From Desulfovibrio oxyclinae DSM 11498 (GTDB lineage: Bacteria > Desulfobacterota > Desulfovibrionia > Desulfovibrionales > Desulfovibrionaceae), in assembly GCF_000375485.1 (NCBI RefSeq), contig NZ_AQXE01000003.1:164912-228911 (forward strand): DNA of 64,000 nt, written 5' to 3'. The position numbers and the translations under genes were made by a program. Below, in pieces: positions 35,631-60,355 of this stretch (its first letter is position 1; every line of letters starts with the position of its first letter). The notes beneath the pieces were generated by a model. It worked only from the letters and a program-made list of their open reading frames with translations, was not told the origin of the DNA and ran no database searches.

Positions 35631-35768
35631 TGCGGTTTTACCCCAAATTTTATTGCCCGAGATTACGACTACCTAAGCTGAAACATGCCATGAAGTTTCC
35701 GCAAGAATGAAGTCAACCCCTTGCTTCCGATTAGGGCTTGGGCTAGGTTCTTGCGCGTTCACGATGTC

Positions 35769-35927
35769 CTTCAGGTGGCCTACCGGCCACAACAGGGAAT
35801 CCGGTGAAAATCCGGGGCGGTCCCGCCGCTGTAATCCCCTACCGAAAGGGAAAGGAAAGGTCCACGAGCCACTGCCGAAAGGCGGGAAGGCGGGCCGGAC
35901 GGGGAAAGCCAGAAAACCTGCCTGAAG
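35769..35927 (+). ncRNA. Cobalamin riboswitch (adenosylcobalamin type) upstream of nrdD
   Basis: The core elements are all present: P1 arms CTTCAGG (35769-35775) and CCTGAAG (35921-35927), ACAGGGAATCCGGTG with the following CCGGGGCGGTCCCGCC-type stem and CTGTAAT, GCCACTG, and a B12 box AAGCCAGAAAACCTGCC at 35906-35922. It lies 190 nt before the nrdD start on the same strand. The expected action is repression of nrdD when cobalamin is plentiful. Confidence 0.95.
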
Positions 35928-36052
35928 CGTATCCAGCCCGGAGCGAAGCGCGGACTTTGCCAAGGGTCATGATTGGTTCACATAACAAAAACAGTTGCCG
36001 TGCCGTGTCGGTTCAGCCGTCCGCGCCGAAAGGGCAACCCTGCAAAACAGTC

Positions 36053-44556: not shown

Positions 44557-45918
44557 TCAGGCGTTTCGGACGCCGTGTTTCTTCATCAGGTCATAGAAAG
44601 TGGGTCGGCTGACGCCAATGGAGGCGGCGGCCTTGACGATGTTGCCGGATTCCCGCTTGAGCGCATCCTCTACCATGTCGCGCTCCAGAAGCATTCTGGC
44701 TTCCTTGAGCGACAGGTCGTTGGCGTGCAGCCGTTGGCGAAGCACATCGCCGCCGTTGATGCCGAGGTCATCGGGTTCAATCTGCGGCCCGGTGGCCATG
44801 ATGACGGCACGTTTGACGCGGTTTTCCAGCTCTCGGATGTTCCCGGGCCAGTCGTAACCGTTGATGTATTCCAGGGCTTCCGGACTGAACGCCTTGCCAC
44901 GGCTTCCGGCTCCCGCGCTTACGCGTTTAAGGAAATAGTTCGCCAAAAGCGCGATGTCCGCCCCCCGGTCGCGAAGCGGCGGAAGCACGATGTTGACCAC
45001 GCCGATCCGGTAGAACAGATCCTCCCGGAACGTGCCGTTCTGCATGGCCTCCTGAATATCCACGTTGGTGGCCGCGATAATACGCACGTCCACTTCGATG
45101 TCGCGCCGGCCGCCCACGCGGGTGATGACCATCTCCTGCAGGAACCGGAGCAGCTTGACCTGAAGCGACATGGGCATCTCCCCGATCTCATCAAGAAACA
45201 GGGTGCCCTTTTCCGCATATTCCACCTTGCCCTTGACCGTGCGGTTGGCCCCGGTGAAGGCCCCCTTCTCGTGTCCGAAGAGTTCCGACTCCAACAGGTT
45301 TTCGGGAATGGCGCCGCAGTTGATGCAGACCATGTCTTTGTCGGCGCGCGGCCCCTTGGCATGGATTGCACGGGCCACCAGCTCCTTGCCGGTGCCGGAT
45401 TCGCCGGTGATGAGCACCGGAACATCCGAGGCCGCAACGCGATCGATAAGTGTGAAGACCTCTTGCATGGTGCCGCACTCGCCCACTATGCCGCAGTCCG
45501 CTACCGAGGAGTCGCGAAGGTCCTGATTCTCCTGCTCCAGCGTTTGCAGGTACATGGCGCGATCAATGATGATCTTGAGCTCATTCAGGTCGATGGGCTT
45601 CTTGTAATAGTCATAGGCCCCGCCCTGCACAGCCTTGAGCGCCGCGCCGTGCTCCTCGTTGCCGGTGATGACGATGATCTTGGACAGCGGATTGATGCGC
45701 AGCATTTCGCCGAGGCAGCGAAGTCCTTCCTCCACGCCGTTTTCGTGCGGCGGAAGGCCAAGATCCAGCGTGACCACGGAAGGCTCCTGTTTTTTGAACA
45801 TATTCAGCCCTTCCACGCCGTCGCGTGCAAAGGTCAGCTCATAGCCGCCCTTTGAAAGGCCCCACTTGAGCTGGCGGCGAACCTCGTCGTTGTCGTCAAT
45901 GATGAGTAACTTCTGCAT
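44557..45918 (-). CDS. prsR: Sigma-54-dependent response regulator PrsR
   Basis: 453 residues: receiver ([23 protein letters not shown]), AAA+ domain (Walker [16 protein letters not shown] loop, Walker [18 protein letters not shown]) and a Fis HTH ([21 protein letters not shown]). The receiver motif [17 protein letters not shown] is characteristic of the PEP-CTERM-box regulator family PrsR. It is encoded 30 bp after prsK. It is expected to activate sigma-54 promoters of the exopolysaccharide genes, and shared palindromes are found before all three units of the locus. Confidence 0.92.
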
Positions 45919-45948: not shown

Positions 45949-48003
45949 TTACTCCGCCACGGGAATGCCGGGGAAGTTGACGCTGAAGGTCGCTCCCTCG
46001 CCCTCGACGCTGGTGGCGAGAATGGCACCACCGTGCGCTTCCACGATCTGCTTGCTCTGGTACAGGCCGATGCCCATGCCCTTTCGCTTGGTGGTGCGGA
46101 AGGGAAGAAACAGACCGTCCTTGAGCAGCTGAGGATCGATTCCGCCGCCGAAATCCACCACCTTGAGCCTCGGACCGTCCTCGTCCTCTTCCACAATGAC
46201 CTTGAACGGTTTGCCCCCGCCCGCCTCCATGGCGTTCATGAACAGGTTGAGGGTGACCTTGCGGATCTCCTCGCTGTCCACCCGCGCCTTGGCGCCGCCA
46301 CCTTCAAATTCGATTTTGGCATCGGGGATCAGCTTGGCGGTTTCACGGGCAAGCTCCATGAGATCCACAGGCTTGAGCTTGAGTTCGCCCTTGCCGGGGA
46401 TATTGGTGAGTTGGGCGATGAGCACATTCATACGGCCCACGATGTTGGAAAGCGAGTCCAACATATCTTTCTGGAATTCCGGCTCGTTGATGTACTCGCG
46501 AGCATTCTCCACGAGAAGCGAGAGCGGATAGACCTGATTCTTCAGGTCGTGCAGCACGAAGGCCGCGACTTTGCCGAAGCCCTCCATGTCTCTGGCCTCG
46601 GCCAGCTCATCGCCGAGCCGAAGATTCATGATCACTGCGGCGGACTGACGGGCGATGGACTCCATAAGCTCCCGGTCCTCTTCGTCGTAGACCTCCACGG
46701 GATTGATGGGCGGTCCCAGCAGAATCAAGCCGAGCAGACCGGAGCCGGTAAAAAGCGGCAGTATGAAACGGACTTCACGACTTTGCAGAAACGCGTCGGT
46801 TTCCTCGTTGAACGAGTATTTTCCGGCCCGCATGTCGATGATCTGCTTTTTGCCTTTGAGCAGCCAGATAAGCTCCGACTCTTGGGGTATGGAGAACTCA
46901 GACTCATCCATTTCATGAAAATGCAGCGGGATGAAGTCGGTGTTGTGCCGCCCCTGCATGAAGACGCTGGCCCCGACGACCCCGAAGGTCTCGCAGTAGA
47001 CAGTAAGAATGTTGCGATACAGTTCATCCCGGCTGCGGGACGAGGTGACGCGATCGGTGAACTTTTTCCACTCGATGCGGTAGTCGTACTTCTCGCCGTA
47101 GAAGTTGCGCTGGATCGTCAGGCGGACCTTGCGGCGCAGGTTTTCCGAGAGCGAGAGCACCACCAGCCCAACGCAGGCGAAGAAGGCGACCACGAAGAAC
47201 GCATAAGTGTTGAACTCATCTCCGAACATCTTCATCCCCTCACCCAGCAGACCGATGCCCAGCAGGAAGATGGCACAGAAGAGTACGACGAAGGAGCGAT
47301 AGGCCAGTCGCCGGGAGATGACGATACGCTCGTCGAAGCCCCGGCTGAGTTCGGAATAAGCGATCATCAGCACGCCGATCACCACGCCAAGGGAGCGGGC
47401 GGTGCCGAAGCTCATGTCCACGGCCCTGAAAAGCAGACTTTGGCTGAAGTACAGGATATGGGCGGCCACGATGGTTCCGCTGCCGACCATGGCAAACTTG
47501 ATCTTCCACTTCGCACCGTGGGGCGCGTTGGTGACGGTAGCTTCAAGGTTGAATAAGGCCACCGCAAGAAAGAGCATTATCTGCAGGTAGAAGAAAAAGG
47601 CCACCGGCTCCAGGAAGAGCATGTTGTCCAGAGCGAAGTCCGGCGAATAGAAAAAACTCCGGGTGGGAAAGAGCAGCGCCATGACGCAGGGGATGAAGGA
47701 CAGTGCCAGTATGATCCGCTGGGTTATGGTTACGTCGCCGGGTGAGAAGCGACGATAATAGCTCAGACTGAAGAGTATCCACGCCGGACAGAGAAGACCT
47801 TCCGCCACATGGGCGTAGCGTCGGTACTGAAGGAAATCCCGCGGGAACTCCAGCGCCAGCAGGTCGAAGACATTCAGCGCCGCCACGGTCCACAGCGCCA
47901 CGAAGAGCGCGATGCGGGAGCGGCCACTATCCCTGCCCACAAGCCTATAAAGCGGATACAGCAGCGCCATGGCAATGGCCAGTGCCTGTATGATCATATC
48001 CAT
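45949..48003 (-). CDS. prsK: Sensor histidine kinase PrsK
   Basis: 684 residues with about eight N-terminal membrane helices (residues 1-290), a GAF-like domain (about 310-460, containing FTDRVTSSRSRDELY) and a C-terminal kinase. The H-box is AAFVLHDLKNQVYPLSLLVE and the ATP domain ends with KGMGIGLYQSKQIVEAHGG. This is the architecture of the PrsK family that accompanies exosortase-type EPS loci. The signal is unknown. It starts 23 bp after the epsI stop. Confidence 0.9.
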   Translation of the reverse strand: MDMIIQALAIAMALLYPLYRLVGRDSGRSRIALFVALWTVAALNVFDLLALEFPRDFLQYRRYAHVAEGLLCPAWILFSLSYYRRFSPGDVTITQRIILALSFIPCVMALLFPTRSFFYSPDFALDNMLFLEPVAFFFYLQIMLFLAVALFNLEATVTNAPHGAKWKIKFAMVGSGTIVAAHILYFSQSLLFRAVDMSFGTARSLGVVIGVLMIAYSELSRGFDERIVISRRLAYRSFVVLFCAIFLLGIGLLGEGMKMFGDEFNTYAFFVVAFFACVGLVVLSLSENLRRKVRLTIQRNFYGEKYDYRIEWKKFTDRVTSSRSRDELYRNILTVYCETFGVVGASVFMQGRHNTDFIPLHFHEMDESEFSIPQESELIWLLKGKKQIIDMRAGKYSFNEETDAFLQSREVRFILPLFTGSGLLGLILLGPPINPVEVYDEEDRELMESIARQSAAVIMNLRLGDELAEARDMEGFGKVAAFVLHDLKNQVYPLSLLVENAREYINEPEFQKDMLDSLSNIVGRMNVLIAQLTNIPGKGELKLKPVDLMELARETAKLIPDAKIEFEGGGAKARVDSEEIRKVTLNLFMNAMEAGGGKPFKVIVEEDEDGPRLKVVDFGGGIDPQLLKDGLFLPFRTTKRKGMGIGLYQSKQIVEAHGGAILATSVEGEGATFSVNFPGIPVAE

Positions 48004-48647: not shown

Positions 48648-48715
48648 GAGGGCACCTCGTAGGTGTTGGTGTTGAGCGAAGGTCCCGCGACAATGGCGGG
48701 GCATGCCCATGAAGC

Positions 48716-48731
48716 AGCGACGCGACAGCCG
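48716..48731 (-). promoter_or_regulatory. Sigma-54-like promoter of the epsI-prsK-prsR unit
   Basis: On the minus strand it reads CGGCTGTCGCGTCGCT: GG and GC are 10 bp apart, and T at -14 and the GC-T are conserved, while the -24 box has C/T/G deviations. The predicted start near 48704 lies 57 nt before epsI and about 90 bp from the palindrome at 48788-48802. Confidence 0.4.
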
Positions 48732-48787
48732 AGGGCATGCGAAACTGTATCGAACGAGTTCGAAAAGGATTCGACAATCCCATCAGC

Positions 48788-48802
48788 TCCGACAGAGTCG
48801 GA
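48788..48802. promoter_or_regulatory. Near-palindrome TCCGACAGAGTCGGA, candidate PrsR-binding site
   Basis: A perfect TCCGAC-AGA-GTCGGA palindrome. A 13/15 match occurs at 59108-59122 in front of prsT and the epimerase operon. Both lie roughly 90-150 bp upstream of sigma-54-like elements. Confidence 0.55.
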
Positions 48803-48851
48803 AAGTGATGCGGTACGCCAAGACGCGTGTTGACAGTGGAAATCAGGCAAG

Positions 48852-48887
48852 AAAAAAGCGCCTTCCGCCCTGCGAGAATCAGGGGCG
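48852..48887 (-). terminator. Possible terminator of the outer-membrane-protein operon
   Basis: On the minus strand a short GC-rich hairpin (arms 48881-48887 and 48866-48871, one bulge) is followed after about 8 nt by TTTTTT, 200 bp downstream of the last gene of the prsT unit. Confidence 0.35.
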
Positions 48888-49083
48888 TCGGGCACTGCGA
48901 AGGTGATCAAGGTTGCGCGGCATCCGCTGCTCGAAGAGCGGGGCCTGTCGGCATGGCTTTGAACCAACCGGCAGCATGTGCCGGGCGCGGTTGCATCAAA
49001 GCGGTTGCTGAACCTGTGCGGATATGTGGTCATGTACTATTTCTGTTCGAGCATGCCCTCCCTTTTGCAGTTTTTCGGAATCA

Positions 49084-50346
49084 TCAGTAGCTCCATGTGA
49101 ACTCCAGTCCCACCGTGTTCGAGATGTAGTCACTGGAGGAGCCAGTGGTGTCATAGCTCTTGAACCGGTAGGTCAGGCCGGCGGAGGCGCGTTCCGTCAA
49201 ACTGTAGTAAAGGCCGTTTGCCACGAGCCATCTGGAACTCGTATTCGGAGAATTCTCCAATTCGAGCGATGCGTCGTAGGTCAAGCGGAGCCTTTCGGTC
49301 AGTTCATGCTCGCCTCCTGCTGAAGGTACCCATTTGCTCGTGTCGCCCGTGGTCTCGTTCGTGCTTTCATACACGTTGTAGGCAAGAGCGACGTTGAAGC
49401 TGCCTCTGTCGTATTCCTTGACCACGCTTGCGGAATAATCCTGCATGGCCCTGGTATCCGCCGTATTCGGGTCCTCACGGTACTCGAAGGACGAATTGAG
49501 TTTTGCGGTCCACCCCTGATCCATGGCGTGCGTCAGGTTGAAGTGCCACGGGAACTGAAGGGTCGAACTTTCGCTGGTATCCTTGAAGTTCGTGTAAGCG
49601 GGGCCGATCCGGAAATCGATCTCCGAGCCTTCCGCGTAGACGAACTTGGCGCCCAGCGCTGCCAGATATCGTTCAAAGCCTCCGTCGACGGTGGAGTCGC
49701 GCGGCTCGTGATTCTCGTACTGGACCGAACTGGACATGCTCCAACGCTTGGTCAGCTCGTGCTCCACGTCCCAGTAGAGGGAGTAAATCTGCTTGTCGAT
49801 GCTGTCTTCGCCGGAGTACCAGAGGTCTTCGTACTTCGCTCCGAAGGTGGTCTGCGTGCGGTCCTGAAGGGGGAACCGGAAATAGGGATTGAGCGTGAAG
49901 GTATTGGAATCCACCGTATCGACGCTGGTATCGTTCTCCGAGACCTCTCCGCGCGTCGCGTCCGTGAACTTCTTGGTGTAAACGTCGCTCACGTCCACGT
50001 AGAACAGGTCTTTGAGCGCTTCCACGTTCAGATTGGTGTTCAGGTAGTGGTTCTGCTCGTCGTCCCGGTTGTTCTGCGTGTAGTCCTTGTACTCGAAGTC
50101 GTAGGACAGGTCGTACTTCACTCTGGCGTGATCGTACGCGGCAGTCACTCCGGGCTTGGCAATGACGAGATAATCGCCCTTGCCGTTCCTGGTCTCGTTG
50201 ACGTTGTCGTTGTATTCCGTGGCAGCCGTGAATCTCGGCTTGATGGTAAAGTCGGCCGCCAAGGCCGGAAGAGAGGACAGAACGGGCAGCAGCACTGCGA
50301 TCGCAAGGACCCTGAGTCCGGTTTTCCCGATTTTCAAACGCTGCAT
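49084..50346 (-). CDS. Outer-membrane beta-barrel protein of the EPS locus
   Basis: The ATG at 50346 gives 420 residues with a signal peptide ending SLPALAADF. The mature chain is made of alternating amphipathic beta strands with Asn/Asp/Tyr-rich turns and ends in an aromatic C-terminal strand (VGLEFTWSY) usual for barrels recognised by the BAM complex. It matches the conserved outer-membrane protein of PEP-CTERM-type EPS loci in position and style. It may be the export pore or a surface anchor; this is inferred. It is the last gene of the prsT transcript. Confidence 0.8.
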   Translation of the reverse strand: MQRLKIGKTGLRVLAIAVLLPVLSSLPALAADFTIKPRFTAATEYNDNVNETRNGKGDYLVIAKPGVTAAYDHARVKYDLSYDFEYKDYTQNNRDDEQNHYLNTNLNVEALKDLFYVDVSDVYTKKFTDATRGEVSENDTSVDTVDSNTFTLNPYFRFPLQDRTQTTFGAKYEDLWYSGEDSIDKQIYSLYWDVEHELTKRWSMSSSVQYENHEPRDSTVDGGFERYLAALGAKFVYAEGSEIDFRIGPAYTNFKDTSESSTLQFPWHFNLTHAMDQGWTAKLNSSFEYREDPNTADTRAMQDYSASVVKEYDRGSFNVALAYNVYESTNETTGDTSKWVPSAGGEHELTERLRLTYDASLELENSPNTSSRWLVANGLYYSLTERASAGLTYRFKSYDTTGSSSDYISNTVGLEFTWSY

Positions 50347-50452
50347 GACAATATCCTGTCCATGATGAAGGATGGTCGCAATTACTTGGAAATTGGACCA
50401 TTGGTACACAATTACCTTTAAGTATGCAAGATGAAACATGAGTCTTCATGTC

Positions 50453-51652
50453 TTATCCGTCCCCCAGCAGAAAGCGGCTGATCCAGCTTCTACGCTTGCT
50501 CGGCCTCAGTCTCGCTTCACCGCGAACCGGTCCGGCGGAAGGTGGTGCCTGCACCGGCCGTCCGAGGCCGATATCCCCGCTCATGGAAAGCGCGTGATCC
50601 ACCCTGCCACCGAGCGCCATGAGGCTGTTTTCCAGCCTTTCAAGCCGGTCCATCATGTCGAGGACCGATGCCTGACCGCCCTTTTCCAGCTCCTTTTCCA
50701 GCACGTTGATGCGCGACTCCATATCCTTGATATTACGCAGAACTCGCTCGGCCTGCCTGTTGCGGCTCGTTGCGGCCTTGCGGACCGACGGGTATGACTT
50801 GGAACATTGTTGCGGGGCCGCGGAGCTGTCGCCGCACCAGTACTGCTGCTCGAAGTCCAGATCCTCCACGATTTCAACAACGTCCTGACGGGTTGTCTCC
50901 CGCTTGCCGTTGGCGCACGCGTCCATGAGGATGTAGTCGCAAAGGATATTCACAAGCCTCGGGATTCCGTGCGTGTTCTGGTAGACTTCCTCGAACACCC
51001 CTTTCTCGAATCTCAGCGCATCACGGTTTCCCGCCCGTTCCAGCCTTGAAAGAACGTACTCCCTGAGTTCGTTCTTCTTCAGGGGCGTCAGATGGCAGGC
51101 CACCTGAATCCGCTGCCTGAGCTGAAGCAGAGCGGGACTTCCAAGGGTTTTGCGAAGCTCCGGCTGGCCGACCAGAATTATCTGCAAGAGCTTTCCGCCG
51201 TCGGTTTCGAGGTTGGAAAGCATCCGAACCTCTTCCAGCAGCTCCAGCGACAGGTTCTGCGCTTCGTCGATGATCAGCACCGCCTGATTGCCACGCGCGT
51301 ATTCGTCGATGAGAAACTCGTTCAAATCCCGCACAAGTTCGATTTTTCCGCGCCCTTCGGTTTCAAGTCCGAAGTCGTCGTTGATCATGGCGAGCAACTG
51401 TCGCGAGTCCACCCGCGTGTTGAAGACCTTGGCCAGCGTGACCCGCTCCAGGTGGCTCTTTATCAGCTGCCTGATGAGCGTCGTCTTGCCCGCGCCGACT
51501 TCACCGGTGAGCAGAATGAACCCTATCCGTCCCTGTATGCCGTACTTGAGATACGAAAGGGCCTTCCCGTGCGTATCGCTCATGTAGAGATAGTCCGGGT
51601 TCGGCAGCAGATCGAAGGGCCGCGAATTCAGATCGAAGAATGATTCGTACAA
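50453..51652 (-). CDS. ExeA-like ATPase of exosortase/EPS systems
   Basis: 399 residues. An N-terminal AAA ATPase begins MYESFFDLNSRPFDLLPNPD as in ExeA/GspA-like proteins, with Walker A GEVGAGKTT and Walker B VLIIDEAQNL. A C-terminal region has a coiled coil (RQAERVLRNIKDMESRINVLE) and a basic end. This is the XrtA-associated ATPase type that usually follows the tyrosine autokinase gene, as here (17 bp apart). It probably couples polymer export to ATP hydrolysis or envelope positioning. Confidence 0.87.
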   Translation of the reverse strand: MYESFFDLNSRPFDLLPNPDYLYMSDTHGKALSYLKYGIQGRIGFILLTGEVGAGKTTLIRQLIKSHLERVTLAKVFNTRVDSRQLLAMINDDFGLETEGRGKIELVRDLNEFLIDEYARGNQAVLIIDEAQNLSLELLEEVRMLSNLETDGGKLLQIILVGQPELRKTLGSPALLQLRQRIQVACHLTPLKKNELREYVLSRLERAGNRDALRFEKGVFEEVYQNTHGIPRLVNILCDYILMDACANGKRETTRQDVVEIVEDLDFEQQYWCGDSSAAPQQCSKSYPSVRKAATSRNRQAERVLRNIKDMESRINVLEKELEKGGQASVLDMMDRLERLENSLMALGGRVDHALSMSGDIGLGRPVQAPPSAGPVRGEARLRPSKRRSWISRFLLGDG

Positions 51653-51669
51653 GTCACACCTCGATGCGC

Positions 51670-52491
51670 TCAGTCGGCATAGTAATATTTGTAGGGAGAA
51701 TACCCTGCGTACCCCATCCCGACACCCATGGCGGCCTGATTGTAGACCGCGCCGAGGATATTGGAACCGCCGAGCGCCTCAACCGTGTCGCGCACTTCAT
51801 ACTGTGTGACCTGCCCTTCCTTGACCACGAGCACCACGCCGTCCACGATTCGTGCGAGGCTTCTCGTCTCCGCAAACGGCAGAACCGGCGGAGAATCCAC
51901 GATGATGTACCGATCGGAATACCGATTCTTCATTTCGGTGAGGATCTGCTTCATCCGGCGCGAGGCCAAAAGTTCTCCAGGACTTTGCATGGCCTTGCCC
52001 GCTGGCAGAAACGTCAGTTTGCCCAGCCCGGTCTTGATCAACGCCTCACTCACATCGCGTCCGTCTGTAAGGCATTCGGTCAGCCCGAATTCCGGCTCGA
52101 TGCCCAGCAGGGTCTGGCAGGTGGGCCGTCTGAGGTCGCCGTCAACAAGCAGCACTGTGTGATCGAACTCCTGCGCGAGGCTGATGGCGAGATTGGTCGC
52201 CGTAACGCTCTTCCCTTCGCCCGATGTGCCGCTGGTCACGAGGATGGTGTTCTGGAAACCGTCGCGTTTGGTCACGCGGACCAGATTCTGCTTCAACTTG
52301 CGAAACTCTTCCGCTGCCGGGCATTGCGGATCATTCACCGAAACGAGCATGTGCTGTCCGGCAATGCGCTCCAGAACTTCCTGTGGCGGCTGCGGGGTGC
52401 GGTGCATGTAGCCGCGTGTTTCCACGCGGCGGCGAGGCTCTTCCCCGCGCATTTCCGTGGCGGCCCTGAGGGCGCGTTCTATACGACTCAT
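51670..52491 (-). CDS. Tyrosine-protein autokinase (CpsD/CapB family) of the EPS locus
   Basis: 273 residues: the P-loop TSGTSGEGKSVTATNLA, the A' motif VLLVDGDLRRPT and the IIVDSPPVLP motif define the BY-kinase. The C-terminus has a Tyr cluster (YAGYSPYKYYYAD) that is the autophosphorylation tail. It has no transmembrane region of its own; its activator is the Wzz-like protein encoded immediately upstream (14 bp). Together they control chain length and export. Confidence 0.92.
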   Translation of the reverse strand: MSRIERALRAATEMRGEEPRRRVETRGYMHRTPQPPQEVLERIAGQHMLVSVNDPQCPAAEEFRKLKQNLVRVTKRDGFQNTILVTSGTSGEGKSVTATNLAISLAQEFDHTVLLVDGDLRRPTCQTLLGIEPEFGLTECLTDGRDVSEALIKTGLGKLTFLPAGKAMQSPGELLASRRMKQILTEMKNRYSDRYIIVDSPPVLPFAETRSLARIVDGVVLVVKEGQVTQYEVRDTVEALGGSNILGAVYNQAAMGVGMGYAGYSPYKYYYAD

Positions 52492-52505
52492 GAAACCGTT
52501 CCTTC

Positions 52506-54011
52506 TCAGGCCAGCATGGCCCTGATTTTCTCAAGCGTGTTGTCCACAAGCGGAAGGTGCAGCAATTCCACCACAAGGAAGAAAAGCGTCACTGAAAAGA
52601 GCAGCCCTGAAACAAGGTACAGCCGGATATTCTTCATGCGACGCCTGTGATCCTCTTCCGGATCGCGAACCTTGGGGACCACGGCGAAAACCGGGAGCCC
52701 CAGCCCGCGAAGGTCATCCACCGTCTTGATGGAAGGATTGATGAGATCCAGCAGGACGATCAGCGCAAGGGCCAGCCCAAGGCCGCCAGCCATGCCACCG
52801 GCCATGATGAGCGGCCGGTTGGGACTCGTTGGGATGGACGGCACCACGGCCGGGTCGAGCACCTTGAACGATACCGACTTGTCCTGAAGCTCCATCTCCT
52901 TGGAGACTTCCGACTGACCATAACGCGAGACCAGCTTTTCGTAGATGATGACCTCGTTCTGCCTGCGCCGTTCCAGTTCGGCCAGCTGAGTCTTCAGGGC
53001 GGGAATCTGTCGCAACAGCTCACGGTTTTTGCGAATTTCGTCTTCCAGATTGTCCCGCTTGGTCTCAAGCGACTTCAGCTGTACCTTGATGCCCTGATAG
53101 TCCCCCGAACGGTATATCTGCTGACGCTCCATGTCGCCGTTCTCACGAATCTGCCTCTTGGTGGCTTCTATCGACTTGCGCATCCGGATGACCCTTGGAT
53201 GCTGCTCGGTGTAGCTCGTAAGAAGCGTTTGCAGCGTGGCCTGCTGATTGATCAGCTTGGTGCGCGAAGGCGTGTTGCTGACGATCATGCTGCGGGCAGT
53301 ATTCAGTTCGTCCAAGCGAATCTGGATACCTTCAAGCTGCTGCTCCGCGCGGTCGATGTTTGCTCGGATGGAACTTTCGTTCGTGGCGAGCATCAGTCCG
53401 GATTTGCTCTTGAACTCGTCGATTTCCTGCTCGATTTCCTCAATTCGGTCCTTGAAGGTGGCGATCTGTTCAGCCAGAAACTGCGTGGCTTCGTAGGATT
53501 CCTTGCGCTTCTCCGAGGTTTTTTCCTCGATGTAGAGCCGGGTGAGCGTATTGACTACGTCGCGGGCCAGCACGGGGTCCTGGTCGGTATAGGAGATGTC
53601 GAAGACGCCCTTCTTTTCATCCAGCCGGATGTCGAGCTTGCTGTTAAGGGTGCGGATGAGGTTGTCCCAGTCAGCGCCGGAACGCAGTTGAACATCCAGA
53701 TCGAGCTCCTTGATGACCTTGAGCAGCATGGAGCGGCTGAGCATGGTCACCTTGATGGCCTTGATCTTCATATCCATGGACGGGGTGATGGCAATGCCCT
53801 TCACCAGATCCTGAATGACGTTTTGTTCTATGAATACGAGGCTCTTGGCGGTATATCGCTTCGGCATGACGTAGCTGACCACCACGGCGCCGAGCATCAC
53901 CAGAAGTGCCACGCTCAGGAACAGTCCCCTGCGCTCCAGAATCAGGCGCAGGTAGCGCATGATGTCGAAGCCACCCTGGTCGGCGGTATGGTTTTGCTGT
54001 TGCGTATTCAT
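52506..54011 (-). CDS. Wzz-like polysaccharide chain-length determinant
   Basis: The ATG at 54011 gives 501 residues. One membrane helix near residues 31-48 and another near 415-435, with a third at the C-terminus, flank a long periplasmic coiled coil (about 180-370) as in Wzz/PCP-2a proteins. An NRPLIMAGGMAGGLGLALAL motif marks the second helix. The C-terminal part lacks a kinase domain, which is encoded separately next to it. Confidence 0.88.
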   Translation of the reverse strand: MNTQQQNHTADQGGFDIMRYLRLILERRGLFLSVALLVMLGAVVVSYVMPKRYTAKSLVFIEQNVIQDLVKGIAITPSMDMKIKAIKVTMLSRSMLLKVIKELDLDVQLRSGADWDNLIRTLNSKLDIRLDEKKGVFDISYTDQDPVLARDVVNTLTRLYIEEKTSEKRKESYEATQFLAEQIATFKDRIEEIEQEIDEFKSKSGLMLATNESSIRANIDRAEQQLEGIQIRLDELNTARSMIVSNTPSRTKLINQQATLQTLLTSYTEQHPRVIRMRKSIEATKRQIRENGDMERQQIYRSGDYQGIKVQLKSLETKRDNLEDEIRKNRELLRQIPALKTQLAELERRRQNEVIIYEKLVSRYGQSEVSKEMELQDKSVSFKVLDPAVVPSIPTSPNRPLIMAGGMAGGLGLALALIVLLDLINPSIKTVDDLRGLGLPVFAVVPKVRDPEEDHRRRMKNIRLYLVSGLLFSVTLFFLVVELLHLPLVDNTLEKIRAMLA

Positions 54012-54024
54012 ATCGTGCCCGGGG

Positions 54025-54825
54025 CTAGAAGAAGCTTTCGCGGACGATGATGTAATCGCCGGGCTGCAGCAGCACGTTTTCGGAAAGATCTCCCTTTTTG
54101 ATGAGCTTGTTCGCATCCACTTCGATGCGTTCACGCTCATCACCGTTCTTGCGCACGATGGTGAAGGTGTCTTCGTTGGCGTACTTGTTGAAACTCCCCG
54201 CTTCCAGCAGAGCGTCGAGTACCGTGAACCCTTCGCGACAGAAGATGGCCTTGGGCTGTGCCACGGCACCGAGCACGAAGACATTCATGTTTTCCTTGAG
54301 GGGGATGAACACGGTATCGCCGGGTTCAAGCTTGATGTCACTCTCGAAGTCTCCCTTGGTGAAGAGAGCGTGGAAATCCTGCATGACCTTCTCGCCGTCC
54401 CTGTAGACGTACGCCTCGTGAAGATCGGCCGCTGCCAGCGACCCCAGCGAGGCAAGCAGATGCAACAGCGTGGTACGCTGGGTCAGGTCGAACACGCGCG
54501 ACTCGACGCCGCCGCCCACGATGTAGACCTTGCTGCTTGCGCTGTTGAGCAGGGAAATGTTGACCAGCGGCTCGCGCACCAGATCGGAAAGCTCGGTGTA
54601 GAGCTTCTTCTTGAGCTGCTGCACGGTAAGCCCCGCCGCGTGCACGTCCTCGATGCCGGGCATGGAGATTTTTCCGTCCGGACGGACCACGGTCTGGGTC
54701 TGGAGTTCGTCCTCTCCCCATACCTGAATGGAAAGGGCATCGCCCTCGCCTATGGTGTAATCCGAAGCAAAACAGGGCGCGGCAAGCGCCAGAACCAGAC
54801 AAAAGGCATAGATGAAACTCTTCAC
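54025..54825 (-). CDS. Wza-like polysaccharide export protein
   Basis: 266 residues with a signal peptide (MKSFIYAFCLVLALAAPCFA). The polysaccharide export domain is recognised by YTIGEGDALSIQVWGEDELQ and VRPDGKISMPGIEDVHAAGL, followed by SLBB domains (VYIVGGGVESRVFDL, NVFVLGAVAQPKAIF) and LLQPGDYIIV. It has no lipobox, unlike many Wza proteins. It is 13 bp upstream of the chain-length gene. Confidence 0.9.
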   Translation of the reverse strand: MKSFIYAFCLVLALAAPCFASDYTIGEGDALSIQVWGEDELQTQTVVRPDGKISMPGIEDVHAAGLTVQQLKKKLYTELSDLVREPLVNISLLNSASSKVYIVGGGVESRVFDLTQRTTLLHLLASLGSLAAADLHEAYVYRDGEKVMQDFHALFTKGDFESDIKLEPGDTVFIPLKENMNVFVLGAVAQPKAIFCREGFTVLDALLEAGSFNKYANEDTFTIVRKNGDERERIEVDANKLIKKGDLSENVLLQPGDYIIVRESFF

Positions 54826-54887
54826 GACAGTCCCCCGACTTTTTGAAGTTCTCGTTCTCCCGACCCCATGGTCGTCGATCCTGTCCG

Positions 54888-56249
54888 CTAGCGCCCCATT
54901 TTGCGGGCCATGACCGCCACGGTGGCGAACATGATCCTAAAATCCAGCAGGAGCGTGTAGTTCTTGATGTAGTAAAGGTCGTAGCGCAGCTTCTCGATGG
55001 AATCCTCCACCGAGGAACCATACGGGTAGCGGACCTGTGCCCAGCCGGTGATGCCCGGCTTGACGAAATGCCTTTCCGAGTAATACGGAATTATCTTCTT
55101 GAGATCCCTAACGAATTCAGGACGCTCGGGCCTCGGCCCCACGAGGCTCATTTCACCCGTGAGTACATTGAACAGCTGTGGCAACTCGTCGATGCGCGTC
55201 TTGCGCAGGAAGTTTCCGAGTCGGGTTATGCGGCTGTCGTTCTTGTCTGACCAGACCGCGCCGCAATCCTTTTCCGCGTCGCAACGCATGGTCCTGAACT
55301 TGTAGATAAGGAATTCGCGGTCGGCGCGTCCCACACGGACCTGCTTGAACAGCGCGGGTCCGCGCGAATCGAGCTTAATGAACAAGGCCACGATCGGCAG
55401 GAAGGGTCCCACCAGCATCAGCCCGAAAAGGCTCAGGACGATGTCGAGCACCCGCTTCACGACCCGGCGAAGCCCGGTGATCCTGAAGCCCTGGGCGAAG
55501 ATGAACCAGCTTGGTGTGATGTTTTCGAGCATCAGCTTGCGGTTGACCTGCTCGTAGAAACCGGGCGCATCCAGCACTTCCATGCCGCTGAGTTTGCAGC
55601 TGAGGACTTCCTGCAACGGGAAGGCTCCCCTGCGTTCGGACAGGGACACCACGATCTTGTGCGCCTTGAGCTTCTTGGCCCGGTTGAGGATATCCATGGT
55701 CACCGGATTGTCCGGATCCTGATCGCTATCGCTGAACTGTCCGGGACGGCATTCGATGTAGTCGCGAAGCTCATATCGTCCGTTGGAGGACTTGACGAGC
55801 TGCATCATGTCTTCTGCCATGGCCCCGTTTCCAACGATGACCACCCGCCTCACCATGCCCGGAAAACGCATGACGTTTTGCGAGGCCACTATCCACAGGG
55901 CGCTTGTGGCTCCGAAGAAGCACAGGATTTGAAGAACCACTTCTTCAAGCTTCGTGAACATGCCCACCTGCCAGTGGATAAGGAACGCCGCGTTCGTGGC
56001 GATGATAAGGCTAAGGAGCAAGCCGTTGAAGCCGTCCTTGCCCCGACGGCGAGCACCCTTGATGATAAGCTCCGCCGCAACGGACGACAGGATGATGATG
56101 CCTGCCAGAGCGGCAAGATCCATGCCTCTTGTTTCAAACAGGACAAGCATGTCCGGCATGTCCCTGAATGCCGCGAGCGGCATGAAACCAAGAACAAGGG
56201 CCAGAATCACGAATGACTTGAAAACGCGTATGGAGGCATAGGTTACCAT
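54888..56249 (-). CDS. Priming undecaprenyl-phosphate sugar-1-phosphate transferase
   Basis: 453 residues with five predicted membrane helices, a Rossmann-like CoA-binding middle (RVVIVGNGAMAEDMM) and the polyprenyl-phosphate transferase domain: KRVLDIVLSLFGLML helix, FKQVRVGRADREFLIYKFRTM and TRIDELPQLFNVLTGEMSLV, GPRPERPEF. It begins chain synthesis on the lipid carrier. The middle LLLL/helical length fits the PEP-CTERM/XrtA-associated subgroup. It lies 14 bp after prsT. Confidence 0.92.
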   Translation of the reverse strand: MVTYASIRVFKSFVILALVLGFMPLAAFRDMPDMLVLFETRGMDLAALAGIIILSSVAAELIIKGARRRGKDGFNGLLLSLIIATNAAFLIHWQVGMFTKLEEVVLQILCFFGATSALWIVASQNVMRFPGMVRRVVIVGNGAMAEDMMQLVKSSNGRYELRDYIECRPGQFSDSDQDPDNPVTMDILNRAKKLKAHKIVVSLSERRGAFPLQEVLSCKLSGMEVLDAPGFYEQVNRKLMLENITPSWFIFAQGFRITGLRRVVKRVLDIVLSLFGLMLVGPFLPIVALFIKLDSRGPALFKQVRVGRADREFLIYKFRTMRCDAEKDCGAVWSDKNDSRITRLGNFLRKTRIDELPQLFNVLTGEMSLVGPRPERPEFVRDLKKIIPYYSERHFVKPGITGWAQVRYPYGSSVEDSIEKLRYDLYYIKNYTLLLDFRIMFATVAVMARKMGR

Positions 56250-56263
56250 GATATCTCCTCGGT

Positions 56264-58915
56264 TTATCCACCGTTAATTTCGTCAAGCAGCTTGCGGGCC
56301 CTGTTGGCGCTGTCCGCATCAGGACTTTCCAGTGCTCCGCCAAGCGCGAGCCTGGCCTGTTCCACATTGCCCAGCGCCCTGTAAGCGTACCCGAGGTGGT
56401 AGAGCACCGCCCCGTTGGCGCCATCCAGCTCACGGGCCTTCTCCAGCACCTTCACCGCTTCTTCGGCCTTGCCGTTCTTGGCCAGCGTGTAGCCGAGGGT
56501 ATCCATTACCGCGAGATTGGACGGTGAGTTGACGTAGGCCGTATAGGCCAGACGCAAGGCTTCGACCGCGGTTTCGGGGTTCTCGACATAAATCGTAGCC
56601 AGGTTGTTCAGAGCCGGGACATAGCGATCCGAGAGTTCCAGCGCCCTGTTGTAGCGCTCCACGGCTTCATCCGTGCGTCCCATGGACTGATAGATGCTGC
56701 CCTGCGCCGAATAGGCCTGATAGAACTTGTCGTCGCGCTTGATTGCCGCATCGAGGTAATTCAGAGCCTTGCGAGGATCGCTGGCTGCAAAATGCCGCCC
56801 CAGCGTCAGGAAGAGTTGCGGAGTGGGGCCGCAGAGATCAAGGCCGCGCTCCAGCGCCATGACGGCTTCTTCGTCCTGTTTGAGCTGTCGGTGAATATTG
56901 TAAAGCGTGAGGTAGCCGCCCGGATTCTTCGGCTGGAAATCCGTAATCTGCCTGGCAGCCACGAGCGCCTTCTCGAAGTCGCCCTTCATCATGAGGGCTC
57001 TGGTCTGAAGACCGAGGGATGAACCGGGGCTGTGGCGTTCCTTTTCGCGACAGATTTCAAGCACGTCATCATACCGCTTCATGCTCAGGAGCACTTCGGC
57101 CCGCATGGCTTCCAGCCCTTGATGACCGCGGTGGGTCTCAAGACCGTCACTGACGAGCTTCAAGGCATCTTCAGGACGCTGCTGGCGAATTCTGTAGGAT
57201 GCATACCCGGCGTAAGCTTCAGGCTCACCGGTCTGCAGACCCTTTTCGAAGCAGGCTTCAACCGCTTCGGGGCGATCCATCAATTCCAGCACGGCTGCCT
57301 TTCCGAGCAGGCCCCGCAGAAACTCCGGACGCTGTTCCAGAAGTGCGTCATATTCCGCAAGCGCCTCTTCGGGCTGCTTCATCGCCAGTTGAAGGCCGGC
57401 CCGCATGAGATAAGGGGAGGGGTTGCTCGGATCGACCGACTTGGCCTTGGCAAGCAGTTCCTCCGCTCGATCCATCTCTTTGGCGGAAAGAGCGATGCGT
57501 GCGAGCAGATTGTAAATGGCCACATCTTCAGGCCCGCCGGTCAACCCTTCGGTCAGGGTCTGCTCCGCAAGATTCCTGTCGCCGTTTCTCAGGTAGAATG
57601 AGGCAAGGATCACGCGGGGGCGGAAGCTGTCCGAAGCCGAAGTTATGGCTTCGCGCAGCGTGTTTTCGGTTTCGGTCAATTCGCCGAGAGAATATTGCAG
57701 CGCACCTAATTTCATATAAGCGCCCGTGACCTCCGGGCGGCTGCTTTTCACCGACGAATACATCTTCAAAGCCTGCTCGCGCTCGCCACGCAGCATATGA
57801 GCGTCACCGAGAGTCATTCTTGCGGCTACGTTCTGCGAATCAGTCTCCAGCACCTTTTCGGCCTCGGCCATGGCTTCATCCACACGCCGCTGCTGAAGAA
57901 GAATGGCACTGATCATCTCCCGCGCACGAACGAACTTGGGCGAACGGTCAGCGACGTTTCGAAAATGCGTGATGGCGGTTTCCAGATCGCCCTTGCCGTA
58001 GGAACTCAGCCCGAGGAAGAACAAGGTTTCCAGCTCGGGCCGCTTGGTCAGCGCCTTCTGGAAAGACTGAATAGCCACGCCGTAGTCCTTGCGGGTGAAT
58101 TGAATAAGACCGGTGAGCTTATCGCCCTCCGGGGAGTTGGGGAAATCCGCATTCAGAGACTCGGCGACGCGTTCGGCGTCATCGTAGCGCTTCTGTTCGA
58201 TGTAGTTCTTGCCCATGATGTAACGGGCCACGGGATCATCGGAGTGCGCCTTGCTCAGACGTTCGTAGGTCGCGTAATACGCCTCCCGGTCGCCCTCAGC
58301 GGCCTGGCGGGCTCCGAGCAGATAAAGACCCTGCTGATGGTCGGGCCACTTGGCAAGCAGTTGAGTCAGTGCGTCATCCAGTTCCTTTTTCATGCCAAGC
58401 TCGGCATAGGTGCGAACCAGCGCCACGCGGGCCGTATCGCGTTCCGGATCCAGCCGAACCACTTTTTCAAGCCGCTCAAGGGCCTGCTCATGACGGCCCA
58501 AACCGGAATAGGCTGCCGCCAGATATTCCTGACCTTTTGCGCTGTCCGGATTCTCCGAACAGTATTTATCCAACAATACCGAAGCTTCCTGATAATTACC
58601 CCGTGCAAGGGCAATGCGTCCCAGCTCCAGATTGACGCGCTTGTCGTACGGATTCTGACGAAGATATTTTTCGAAGCTCTTTTCTGCGTGATTCAGCTTG
58701 CCCGCCATGAGGTAGGCACGACCGAGCCCGTATCGGGCATCCATCTTTTCCGGAGCCTTTTCGAGCACGGTCTTGAATATGACGATGGCCCCCTGATGAT
58801 TTCCTTCGGCAAGGTACTGCGTACCCTCGTTCATCATCTCATCGACACTGCTGCCGCAACCGGCCACAGGGGCAAGAAGCGCGGCGAAAAGGAATATCGC
58901 AAAAAGGAATCTCAA
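56264..58915 (-). CDS. prsT: TPR-repeat lipoprotein PrsT
   Basis: The start is the TTG at 58915, with GGAGGG 5 nt upstream; this gives 883 residues and a lipoprotein signal with lipobox VAGC. The rest consists of about 22 tetratricopeptide repeats (34-residue periodicity, for example YGLGRAYLMAGKLNHAEKSF and LGYAYRALGNVEQARLAL). Large TPR lipoproteins of this length are encoded in nearly all PEP-CTERM-type EPS loci. It is the first gene of the seven-gene minus-strand unit. It may form a periplasmic scaffold for the exporter. Confidence 0.9.
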   Translation of the reverse strand: MRFLFAIFLFAALLAPVAGCGSSVDEMMNEGTQYLAEGNHQGAIVIFKTVLEKAPEKMDARYGLGRAYLMAGKLNHAEKSFEKYLRQNPYDKRVNLELGRIALARGNYQEASVLLDKYCSENPDSAKGQEYLAAAYSGLGRHEQALERLEKVVRLDPERDTARVALVRTYAELGMKKELDDALTQLLAKWPDHQQGLYLLGARQAAEGDREAYYATYERLSKAHSDDPVARYIMGKNYIEQKRYDDAERVAESLNADFPNSPEGDKLTGLIQFTRKDYGVAIQSFQKALTKRPELETLFFLGLSSYGKGDLETAITHFRNVADRSPKFVRAREMISAILLQQRRVDEAMAEAEKVLETDSQNVAARMTLGDAHMLRGEREQALKMYSSVKSSRPEVTGAYMKLGALQYSLGELTETENTLREAITSASDSFRPRVILASFYLRNGDRNLAEQTLTEGLTGGPEDVAIYNLLARIALSAKEMDRAEELLAKAKSVDPSNPSPYLMRAGLQLAMKQPEEALAEYDALLEQRPEFLRGLLGKAAVLELMDRPEAVEACFEKGLQTGEPEAYAGYASYRIRQQRPEDALKLVSDGLETHRGHQGLEAMRAEVLLSMKRYDDVLEICREKERHSPGSSLGLQTRALMMKGDFEKALVAARQITDFQPKNPGGYLTLYNIHRQLKQDEEAVMALERGLDLCGPTPQLFLTLGRHFAASDPRKALNYLDAAIKRDDKFYQAYSAQGSIYQSMGRTDEAVERYNRALELSDRYVPALNNLATIYVENPETAVEALRLAYTAYVNSPSNLAVMDTLGYTLAKNGKAEEAVKVLEKARELDGANGAVLYHLGYAYRALGNVEQARLALGGALESPDADSANRARKLLDEINGG

Positions 58916-59005
58916 AACGACCCTCCGGGTTCTTGTAATTGAGGAGTTCGGATGCCGTATTCCGTCCGACGGCATCGACAATCGTCCTGCAACCTGCCCA
59001 CAAAT

Positions 59006-59021
59006 AGCCAGAAACATGCCA
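59006..59021 (-). promoter_or_regulatory. Sigma-54-like promoter of the prsT operon
   Basis: On the minus strand it reads TGGCATGTTTCTGGCT: -24 TGGCA and -12 GGCT with GG and GC exactly 10 bp apart. The start predicted near 58995 leaves a leader of about 80 nt before the TTG start of prsT. Confidence 0.6.
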
Positions 59022-59107
59022 AGCACTTTTCAGGCAATTTAGCTGATACCTAACAGACAGTTACAACCTATCAACTATCTGTAGATCGACCTTTGAACCC
59101 TTGTTTG

Positions 59108-59122
59108 TCCGGCAAAGTCGGA
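59108..59122. promoter_or_regulatory. Near-palindrome TCCGGCAAAGTCGGA, candidate shared PrsR site
   Basis: It is part of TGTCCG-N7-CGGACA and matches the perfect palindrome at 48788-48802 in 13 of 15 positions. Its centre is about 120 bp from the prsT start predicted on one side and about 150 bp from the epimerase start on the other. Confidence 0.55.
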
Positions 59123-59238
59123 CAGCGAGGGAGCTGTTTCCCTTCGGAAAAGCCAAATGCGCATATCCATACGACCACAGTCGGGAATTGCGTTTTTTTT
59201 GCTATCAAAAACAGCACGTTGGAAATCACAAAACCCGC

Positions 59239-59254
59239 TGTCACATTTTTTGCT
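59239..59254 (+). promoter_or_regulatory. Sigma-54-like promoter of the epimerase-exporter operon
   Basis: TGTCACATTTTTTGCT agrees with TGGCACG-N4-TTGCW except at the second -24 G and the following A. The predicted start near 59265 lies 41 nt before the epimerase ATG. Confidence 0.5.
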
Positions 59255-59305: not shown

Positions 59306-60355
59306 ATGAAGAAAACCCTTGCAGACGGGATGTTTGAAGCCCTGAGACTCAAACCCCGCCGCTGGACGGTCACCGGAGCCGCCGGTTTCATCGGATCACA
59401 CCTGGTGGAAACCCTGCTCAGACTCGATCAGTTCGTGGTGGGAATGGACAACTTTTCAACAGGTTATCAGCACAACCTTGAAGAGGTGCGCAAGTCCGTA
59501 AAACCCGGACAATGGCAACGTTTCAGTTTCATTCACGGTGATATCCGCAACCCCGGCGACTGCACGCGATGCGTTTCGGGCAGCGATTACGTCCTGCATC
59601 AGGCGGCCATCGGAAGCGTGCCGTGGTCTCTGGACGACCCGGCCTTCAGCAACGACAACAACATTTCGGGATTTCTGAACATGCTGTTGGCGGCACGGAA
59701 TGCCAACGTGCGCAATTTCGTCTATGCCGCGTCCAGCTCGACGTACGGGGATCTGCCCGGTCTTCCGAAAAAGGAGGACATGGTCGGCGTGCCGCTCTCC
59801 CCTTACGCGGTGACCAAATACGTGAACGAACTTTACGCCGAGGTCTTCAACACTTGCTACGGATTTCCGTGCATCGGCCTACGTTATTTTAACGTGTTCG
59901 GCCCGAGGCAGGACCCCAACGGCGCCTACGCGGCGGTGATACCCCGCTGGTTCGCCACCATCCTTGAAGGCCGATGCCCGGAAATATATGGCGACGGCGA
60001 AACCACACGCGACTTCTGCTACATAGCCAACACCGTTCAGGCCAACATCCTTGCGGCGATTACGGAAAATCCCGCAGCAAAGGGGCAGGTCTTCAACGTG
60101 GCCCTCGGCGAGAAGACTTCGCTCAATCAGCTCTTCGGACACATCCGGGACATCGTGGCCCGCCGCAAACCGGAGGTCGCTTCAATGGAACCCGTCTATC
60201 GTCAGTTCCGTCCCGGAGACATCCGCCATTCCGTGGCGGATGTGAGCAAGGCATGTGAGCTTCTCGGCTACTGTCCGAGCACATCGGTCGATCAGGGACT
60301 CGCCTACGCCTCGCAGTGGTACATGTCTCAAACACCCCAGCCTGTTGCCTCATGA
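59306..60355 (+). CDS. NAD-dependent UDP-sugar epimerase/dehydratase (WbpP/TviC-like)
   Basis: 349 residues of the extended short-chain dehydrogenase family. [20 protein letters not shown] is the NAD-binding P-loop, [10 protein letters not shown] and the catalytic [14 protein letters not shown] (YxxxK) follow, and [20 protein letters not shown] is the substrate-binding segment of UDP-HexNAc 4-epimerases such as WbpP. It probably makes the UDP-GalNAc-type precursor for the exopolysaccharide. It has an N-terminal extension of about 20 residues before the Rossmann strand. It is the first gene of the plus-strand operon. Confidence 0.87.

What the first reader, a model, noticed from the sequence alone, without database searches (positions are those of the whole stretch)
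48788..59254. One predicted PrsR-sigma-54 regulon covering three EPS transcription units
A 15-bp near-palindrome with the consensus TCCG(A/G)CA(A/G)AGTCGGA occurs before epsI-prsK-prsR (48788-48802) and between the divergent prsT and epimerase operons (59108-59122). Sigma-54-like elements at 48716-48731 (-), 59006-59021 (-) and 59239-59254 (+) give predicted starts about 90, 120 and 150 bp from the palindrome centres, the range usual for enhancer-binding proteins. Since prsR encodes a sigma-54 activator, the locus would be autoregulated and the two divergent operons would share one enhancer. The seen part is the sequence match; binding by PrsR is inferred. The element at 48716 is the weakest of the three.
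Basis: partly seen in the sequence, partly recalled or inferred. Interest (0 to 1): 0.8.

Follow-up and report, generated by a model that had tools for sequence, protein, structure and literature searches.

The report
Slime-operon switch controlled by PrsR

Summary
At 59106-59124 lies a 19-bp palindrome (TGTCCG-N7-CGGACA). In all 10 PrsR-bearing genomes of the genus (host included) such a palindrome lies 81-85 bp (84 in 7) upstream of a -24/-12 element before prsT, while the spacer letters are nearly random. An exact composite search gives this one site in the host genome, and 8 hits against 0 control in 36 congeners. So prsT very probably has a sigma-54 promoter with a fixed-distance enhancer. 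PrsR is the likely activator: a D. vulgaris paper lists operon DVUA0036-0041 as target of its orthologue DVUA0057, and that promoter has a like palindrome at 85 bp. The 48788 copy does not fit the motif (rank 239 in the window), is absent before prsK/xrt in relatives, and its -24/-12 is chance level; autoregulation is not supported. The divergent operon is plausible but weaker. A further candidate is the exosortase operon about 24 kb beyond the window, with the same geometry, in the host only. A new member of a known regulon.

The parts
59106..59124 (.).
   Evidence: Such a palindrome in 10 of 10 PrsR-bearing congeners at 81-85 bp from the -24/-12; leave-one-out score 19.5, 0 of 500 shuffles; only exact match to the motif in the genome
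59006..59021 (-). Sigma-54 -24/-12 element of prsT, TGGCATGTTTCTGGCT
   Evidence: Score 14.5 of 15.5, 8 such or better sites on 128k positions of the window; like element in 9 of 9 relatives
56264..58915 (-). prsT, TPR lipoprotein, first gene of the prsT-EPS operon; probable start is TTG at 58915 with a lipoprotein-like signal
   Evidence: TIGR02917 437.7 bits, cut-off 312.2; start codon and first residues checked
59493..59511 (.). Distal palindrome AGTCCGTAAAACCCGGACA inside the epimerase gene, 387 bp from the proximal one; role inferred
   Evidence: Rank 1 in the window with the matrix made without the window; relatives have a distal palindrome 250-356 bp upstream, 9 of 9
58543..58561 (.). 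Third palindrome TGTCCGGATTCTCCGAACA inside prsT; role unknown
   Evidence: Rank 3 in the window
59239..59254 (+). Possible sigma-54 element of the epimerase operon, TGTCACATTTTTTGCT (GT in place of GG at -24)
   Evidence: Score 13.5 of 15.5, 0.04 expected per 150 positions; 4 of 6 relatives scored have a -24/-12 of 14 or more before abcP
59306..60355 (+). NAD-dependent epimerase-like gene, first gene of the divergent operon; abcP, abcA, HlyD-like and CAAX-like genes follow
   Evidence: ORFs (names by eye); abcP is the nearest matched divergent gene in 7 of the 9 relatives (not in L045 and L051)
44557..45918 (-). prsR, receiver-AAA+-Fis activator (GAFTGA present), predicted activator
   Evidence: TIGR02915 627.1 bits, cut-off 502.6; sequence
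45949..48003 (-). prsK, sensor kinase
   Evidence: TIGR02916 456.3 bits
48027..48647 (-). epsI, orphan here: no exosortase gene beside it
   Evidence: TIGR02914 149.7 bits; start checked; the host's only exosortase lies at G000:C3:252590-253288
48788..48802 (.).
   Evidence: Score -1.4, rank 239; minus-strand RNA fold -15.2 kcal/mol, z -3.67, 0 of 200 shuffles; not in relatives
48716..48731 (-).
   Evidence: 1.56 such or better expected per 150 positions
48855..48871 (-). Terminator-like hairpin with T-run between the OMP gene and epsI-prsK-prsR
   Evidence: 1 found, shuffles mean 0.7, so not above chance by itself; a T-run of 6 or more lies before prsK/xrt in 8 relatives too

Best explanation
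The prsT-EPS operon is transcribed by sigma-54 RNA polymerase from 59006-59021 (-). A PrsR dimer, phosphorylated by PrsK, binds the 19-bp palindrome at 59106-59124 with its Fis-type HTH; a second dimer probably binds a distal palindrome (59493 here); looping across a fixed 84 bp (about eight helical turns) brings the AAA+ ring to the closed complex. The same geometry precedes the exosortase operon about 24 kb beyond the window (xrt, then genes that look like a mannose-1-phosphate guanylyltransferase, a glycosyltransferase and an O-antigen ligase), so in this species PrsR would switch polysaccharide export and the protein-sorting enzyme on together. The divergent epimerase-ABC operon may use the same enhancer. 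epsI-prsK-prsR is not a direct target. Shown here: sequence, conservation before prsT, geometry, specificity. Published for the D. vulgaris orthologue: DNA-affinity (DAP-chip) targets and regulon reconstruction. Inferred: binding by this PrsR, activation, phosphorylation, looping, and the exosortase as target.
For: 10 of 10 PrsR-bearing congeners have the palindrome at 81-85 bp from a -24/-12 (7 exactly 84; SD 1.06), while spacer identity is 0.54 against 0.49 with one partner shuffled and the proximal-distal distance varies from 250 to 356 bp. Composite with up to 3 mismatches and gap 84: 22 hits against 4 control in 60 genomes; of the 8 hits with 0-1 mismatch 7 are prsT promoters of PrsR-bearing genomes. 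The same pattern with a gap of 86 gives 13 against 7, none at prsT. Exact composite, gap 80-88: 8 hits in 36 congeners, control 0, 7 of 8 at prsT. Exosortase promoter in the host: -24/-12 TGGCATGTTTTTGGCT, palindrome at gap exactly 84, second palindrome 156 bp on. Exosortase of 217 bits or more in 17 of 17 PrsR-bearing genomes; any exosortase in 10 of 43 others. D. vulgaris DP4 prsT: palindrome TGTCCTGATAAGCCGGACG at gap 85, 1 of 2000 shuffles as good; same HTH core SRPTFYDL. Kazakov 2015 lists DVUA0036-DVUA0041 as target of DVUA0057, and Haft 2006 names these two PrsT and PrsR.
Against: PrsR-negative congeners G006, G019, G029 and G031, which have an exosortase of another type, carry similar palindromes 71-84 bp from a -24/-12-like element, and have no PrsK over the cut-off: the box can be read by another activator. 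Kazakov 2015 reports a motif shared by DVUA0057 and DVU0110. The palindrome alone is not exclusive: with up to 1 mismatch the 26 PrsR-less congeners hold 166 against 101 control, the 10 PrsR-bearing ones 61 against 20 after 31 copies of a repeat in G012 are taken out. The exosortase box is in the host only: no palindrome of 10 or more was found before the exosortase in the 9 PrsR-bearing relatives, and the host's proximal copy is imperfect (14.8). Outside the genus the box is not seen before prsT in 10 of 11 loci read. In Aquincola prsT transcription seemed not to depend on RpoN1. The proximal palindromes were picked as best consensus match within about 180 bp; the gap was not imposed.
Confidence: 0.75

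Rival explanations
1. The sigma-54 promoter and enhancer before prsT are real, but the activator is another NtrC-family protein with a similar Fis HTH (for instance of the DVU0110 kind), alone or together with PrsR.
For: Similar boxes in PrsR-negative congeners; published shared motif of DVUA0057 and DVU0110; activators with a partly similar helix exist in G019 and G031 (SRGYLYELLKKHG) and G018 (SRGYLYEMMKKFG).
Against: In the host genome an HTH search at E 0.001 returns PrsR (E 2.9e-35) and one remote protein (E 9.0e-4, 29%) only; exact composite sites go with PrsR in 7 of 8 hits; DVUA0057 is listed for the D. vulgaris prsT operon.
Confidence: 0.15
2. One three-unit regulon with autoregulation: PrsR also activates epsI-prsK-prsR from 48716 through the palindrome at 48788.
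For: Palindromic core TCCG-N7-CGGA present (5 such cores in the window); a GG-N10-GC at suitable distance; G044 of another family has a good palindrome directly before prsR, though without a -24/-12 between; in G021 (L050) a palindrome of 15.7 lies inside prsK.
Against: The site lacks the TGT/ACA flanks and scores -1.4; -24/-12 at chance level; between OMP and prsK/xrt of the 9 relatives the scan found nothing above 9.0 (sequences of 8 read in full); RNA hairpin instead; the D. vulgaris target table seen does not hold the PrsR operon.
Confidence: 0.05
3. PrsR and PrsK are autoregulated indirectly: the sigma-54 transcript from prsT reads through the OMP gene and a terminator-like hairpin into (xrt-epsI-)prsK-prsR.
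For: All these genes lie on one strand in the same order in 10 congeners; a T-run with a possible stem lies before prsK/xrt in the window and 8 relatives.
Against: In the window the fold is no better than shuffles (-25.3 against -24.9), in relatives better by 2 to 11.5 kcal/mol with the best of many lengths chosen; no transcript data; the OMP-epsI gap in the window is over 400 bp.
Confidence: 0.3
4. The palindromes are terminators or a repeat family, and their place is chance.
For: Some relatives have a T-run after the palindrome; in G012 31 of 36 hits are one repeat.
Against: Fixed distance to -24/-12 with near-random spacer in 10 species; location between divergent genes; no T-run at the window's site; exact composite control 0.
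Confidence: 0.02

Closest known systems
PrsK-PrsR / sigma-54 regulon of PEP-CTERM genes (Haft et al. 2006, PMC1569441; section 7 and found passages read)
   Same: PrsR, PrsK, PrsT families; an upstream box followed by a -24/-12 element; box-promoter spacing (84) inside the published range 32-92 bp
   Different: The published box ends in TTTACA and was found before PEP-CTERM genes; here the box is WGTCYG-N7-CRGACW, the targets are the EPS operon and perhaps the exosortase operon, and the spacing is near-constant instead of 62.8 +/- 10.6
DVUA0057 regulon of Desulfovibrio vulgaris Hildenborough (Rajeev 2011, PMC3333781, passages; Kazakov 2015, PMC4641369, abstract and passages; figures and supplements not seen)
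   Same: Orthologous regulator (54.4% identity to the protein of strain DP4; same HTH core) and the same target operon DVUA0036-DVUA0041 with a sigma-54 promoter; the DP4 promoter has a like box at 85 bp
   Different: That regulon also has PEP-CTERM and permease targets; the exosortase is not in the table seen; the printed motif itself was not seen here
RpoN1-dependent pepA of Aquincola tertiaricarbonis (PMC9850573; passages read)
   Same: Sigma-54 promoter mapped before a PEP-CTERM gene upstream of prsT
   Different: There prsT itself seemed not RpoN1-dependent

Membership tests
PrsR (TIGR02915) | Score over the curated cut-off 502.6 bits | tested here: met
   627.1 bits
PrsR (TIGR02915) | Receiver, AAA+ with GAFTGA, Fis HTH | tested here: met
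   GAFTGA and [16 protein letters not shown] in the translation; the family hit spans 4-450 of 453; domains not scanned one by one
PrsK-PrsR-PrsT system (Haft 2006) | prsK, prsT and an exosortase in the same genome | tested here: met
Haft 2006 cis-site | Motif 1 with 3' end TTTACA 32-92 bp upstream of motif 2 | tested here: not met
   TTTACA or TGTAAA occurs in 4 of 10 prsT regions, at other distances from the -24/-12 (arithmetic)
Haft 2006 cis-site | Motif 2, -24 GG / -12 GC | tested here: met
   prsT and xrt promoters
Sigma-54 promoter | Transcription start 12 nt downstream of GC and rpoN dependence | not testable with these tools
   needs RNA and mutants
PrsR binding site | Footprint or DAP signal with this PrsR | not testable with these tools
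   I saw published data for the D. vulgaris orthologue only
Autoregulated NtrC-type unit (48788) | Conserved box and good -24/-12 before the regulator's operon | tested here: not met

The most novel reading that the evidence does not exclude
In this lineage the exosortase gene left the xrt-epsI-prsK-prsR operon (still together in G002, G007, G010 and, with one gene more after OMP, G009) and, at its new place about 40 kb from epsI, came under a PrsR promoter of identical geometry (palindrome, 84 bp, -24/-12), so that the sorting enzyme and the EPS export operon are switched together; and in PrsR-less sister species the same box serves XrtD-type sorting loci through a different activator, that is, the box stayed while the regulator was exchanged.
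Probability: 0.35. Interest if true: 0.55.

Novelty: new member of a known kind. Interest (0 to 1): 0.38.

Why it matters
It gives an exact, testable binding sequence and spacing for PrsR in a genus of sulfate reducers, and suggests that the EPS export operon and, in this species, the exosortase are direct targets beside PEP-CTERM substrates. Biofilm and slime of these bacteria matter in sediments and in metal corrosion (general knowledge). It also warns that a palindrome core alone (48788) can mislead: flanks, spacing and relatives decide.

Tried and rejected
The one-mismatch copy at C8:18556 (L003): lies in a long ORF without a -24/-12 nearby. Rfam search of 48600-49300 with E up to 5: nothing. 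The other 4 of 7 host matches to the 19-bp motif with up to 1 mismatch, beside the prsT, epimerase and exosortase ones: C4:74451 and C5:192875 lie inside ORFs; C11:104372 and C14:41732 lie outside the likely genes but have no -24/-12 within 300 bp. The excess in G012 (36 against 4) is one repeat in 31 of 36 cases. A first composite search used a gap of 86 by a counting mistake (13 against 7 control, none at prsT); it served as a spacing control and was repeated with 84. A search for the regulator of PrsR-less genomes by HTH similarity gave no candidate common to all four. Seven PrsR-bearing genomes of other families (G039, G044, G047, G048, G055, G056, G059) were left out of the prsT footprint because tblastn found no prsT in the stretches fetched. 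Of the 80 loci, 34 were scanned for boxes and 11 with a prsT and enough sequence before it were read in detail. The script stopped with an error at its last item (second half of L051). The script stopped after 26 of 29 loci, and L150 (the host's exosortase) was read there in the wrong frame, so that line was not used; the host promoter was read. Shuffles keep base composition only. The sigma-54 consensus used for scoring is recalled, not from a call.
Full report
Observation. With mismatches the consensus shows little or no enrichment: 10 hits in the window against 7.74 +/- 2.63 in shuffles; 23 and 24 hits on the two strands of the genome against 19 and 14 for the reversed control. A consensus drawn from two sites proves little, so the sites were judged one by one against relatives.

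Genes. prsR, prsK, epsI, OMP, ATPase, tyrosine kinase, chain-length, export, glycosyltransferase and prsT are the XrtA/PEP-CTERM set by NCBIfam scores. Of 60 genomes searched, the host included, 17 have PrsR over the cut-off; all 17 have an exosortase of 217 bits or more, while 10 of the other 43 have any exosortase. In the host's genus (36 genomes held) 10 genomes, host included, have PrsR, with the same order from prsT to prsR, with or without xrt and epsI.

prsT promoter. In all 10 a 19-bp palindrome, consensus about WGTCYGRNTTTNCCGGACA, lies upstream of a -24/-12 element of the type TGGCAYRNTTMTNGCW before prsT. The gap is 84 in seven species and 85, 83 and 81 in the others. The palindromes were picked as the best consensus match within about 180 bp, so the gap was not imposed. 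Their leave-one-out scores are 12.8-25.1; in 8 of 10 none of 500 shuffles of the region reaches them, in L044 9 and in L050 1 do. The spacer between has mean pairwise identity 0.54, against 0.49 when one partner is shuffled. So the length is kept and the letters hardly are, as expected if DNA looping sets the distance. A second palindrome lies 250-356 bp further upstream in 9 of 9 relatives; in the window the best candidate is at 59493, inside the epimerase gene, 387 bp away. The four best-scoring places of the window are 59493, 59106, 58543 and 61121, within 2.6 kb of each other around this promoter.

Specificity. The palindrome with no mismatch occurs once in the host genome, at prsT. A composite of palindrome, 84 bp and -24/-12 with up to 3 mismatches gives 22 hits in 60 genomes against 4 for the reversed control; the 8 with 0-1 mismatch are the prsT promoters of G000, G002, G007, G010, G012, G023, G028 and one site in G006. 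The same composite with 86 bp gives 13 against 7, none at prsT. An exact composite with gap 80-88 gives 8 hits in 36 congeners and 0 in the control; 7 are prsT promoters and one lies before a gene of G031 with a VPLPA-CTERM-like end (25.0 bits, cut-off 25.35). The palindrome alone is much less specific: with up to 1 mismatch the 10 PrsR-bearing congeners hold 61 against 20 control once 31 copies of a repeat in G012 are removed, and the 26 PrsR-less congeners hold 166 against 101 (sums over).

A candidate outside the window. The palindrome search led to G000:C3:253.5 kb: -24/-12 TGGCATGTTTTTGGCT, palindrome ACTCCTGAAAAACCGGACA (score 14.8) at a gap of exactly 84, a second one (18.0) 156 bp further. 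The gene behind is the host's only exosortase (TIGR02602 217 bits), followed by ORFs whose first residues look like a mannose-1-phosphate guanylyltransferase, a glycosyltransferase and an O-antigen ligase (read by eye, not by HMM). In G002, G007 and G010 the exosortase sits between OMP and epsI, in G009 with one more gene between. None of the 9 PrsR-bearing congeners has a palindrome of score 10 or more before its exosortase, also not the five where the gene lies outside that operon. So this target rests on the host alone, on the exact spacing and on what the gene is.

The 48788 site. It lacks the flanks of the motif (score -1.4, rank 239). Between OMP and prsK/xrt of the 9 relatives the scan finds nothing above 9.0 (L043), and L050 has a 15.7 palindrome inside prsK. 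The stretch folds as a hairpin of -15.2 kcal/mol, z -3.67. A T-run lies before prsK/xrt in the window and in 8 relatives; the stem before it folds better than shuffles by 2 to 11.5 kcal/mol in the relatives but not in the window. prsK-prsR may thus be reached by read-through or by an unseen promoter. Autoregulation as proposed is not supported.

The divergent operon. Four of six relatives scored (L043, L047, L048, L050) have a -24/-12 of 14 or more before abcP; L046 and L049 do not. L044, L045 and L051 were not scored because the stretch before their divergent gene is longer or another gene lies there. A shared enhancer is possible in the host, whose intergenic stretch is short.

Which activator. 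Haft 2006 names DVUA0057 and DVUA0036 as PrsR and PrsT of D. vulgaris. [quoted passage not shown] Kazakov 2015 lists six target operons, DVUA0036-DVUA0041 among them; the regulator's own operon is not in that table (supplements not seen). In the plasmid of strain DP4 the prsT promoter has TGGCACGGTATTGGCT and TGTCCTGATAAGCCGGACG at a gap of 85; 1 of 2000 shuffles scores as high. Regulator identity is 54.4% with the same HTH core SRPTFYDL. This makes PrsR the likely reader of the box, and it means that control of the prsT operon by PrsR is in print for D. vulgaris. I did not see the printed motif.

Results against. PrsR-negative congeners G006, G019, G029 and G031 have an exosortase; it is of the XrtD type by score in G006, G019 and G029, while that of G031 was scored by TIGR02602 only. 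They have similar pairs at gaps of 84, 80, 71 and 83: before VPLPA-CTERM-like genes under the cut-off in G019 and G031, before an unclassified ORF in G006, and upstream of a sugar-nucleotide or EPS-like locus in G029. None of the four has PrsK over the cut-off; the activator there is unknown, and several of their -12 elements are poor. Before prsT of 11 loci outside the genus the box is absent in 10 (best score 11.7); the eleventh, L224, has a strong palindrome without a good -24/-12 near it. Nitratidesulfovibrio liaohensis keeps the -24/-12 (TGGCATGGTATTGGCT) but not the box. In Aquincola prsT seemed not RpoN1-dependent. TTTACA, the end of Haft's motif 1, is not in place in any of the 10 prsT regions.

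Verdict. One of the three promoters is solid by conservation, one plausible, one rejected, and a further candidate lies outside the window. The system is a new, well-resolved member of the known PrsR-sigma-54 regulon, with a box unlike Haft's TTTACA motif.

Noticed in passing
window 35756-35939 (+): Cobalamin riboswitch (RF00174, 97.6 bits).
   Followed up: no
window 48027-48647: epsI without a neighbouring exosortase; the host's only exosortase is at G000:C3:252590-253288 with its own PrsR-like promoter.
   Followed up: yes
window 48825-48905 (-) and relatives: T-run with a possible stem between OMP and prsK/xrt in the window and 8 relatives; possible attenuator or terminator.
   Followed up: partly
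L163-L166 (G006, G019, G031, G029): Exosortase loci of another type with a similar palindrome and a -24/-12-like element, in genomes without PrsR and PrsK over the cut-offs.
   Followed up: partly
L043:12479, L047:9197, L048:12478, L049:10917: A good palindrome inside the export gene of several relatives; coding conservation or an intragenic site.
   Followed up: no
L040:16446-16464 (G044): Good palindrome directly before prsR in a genome of another family, without -24/-12 between.
   Followed up: no
G012, 31 places: A repeat containing AGTGTGGTTTACTCGGACT in 31 copies.
   Followed up: no
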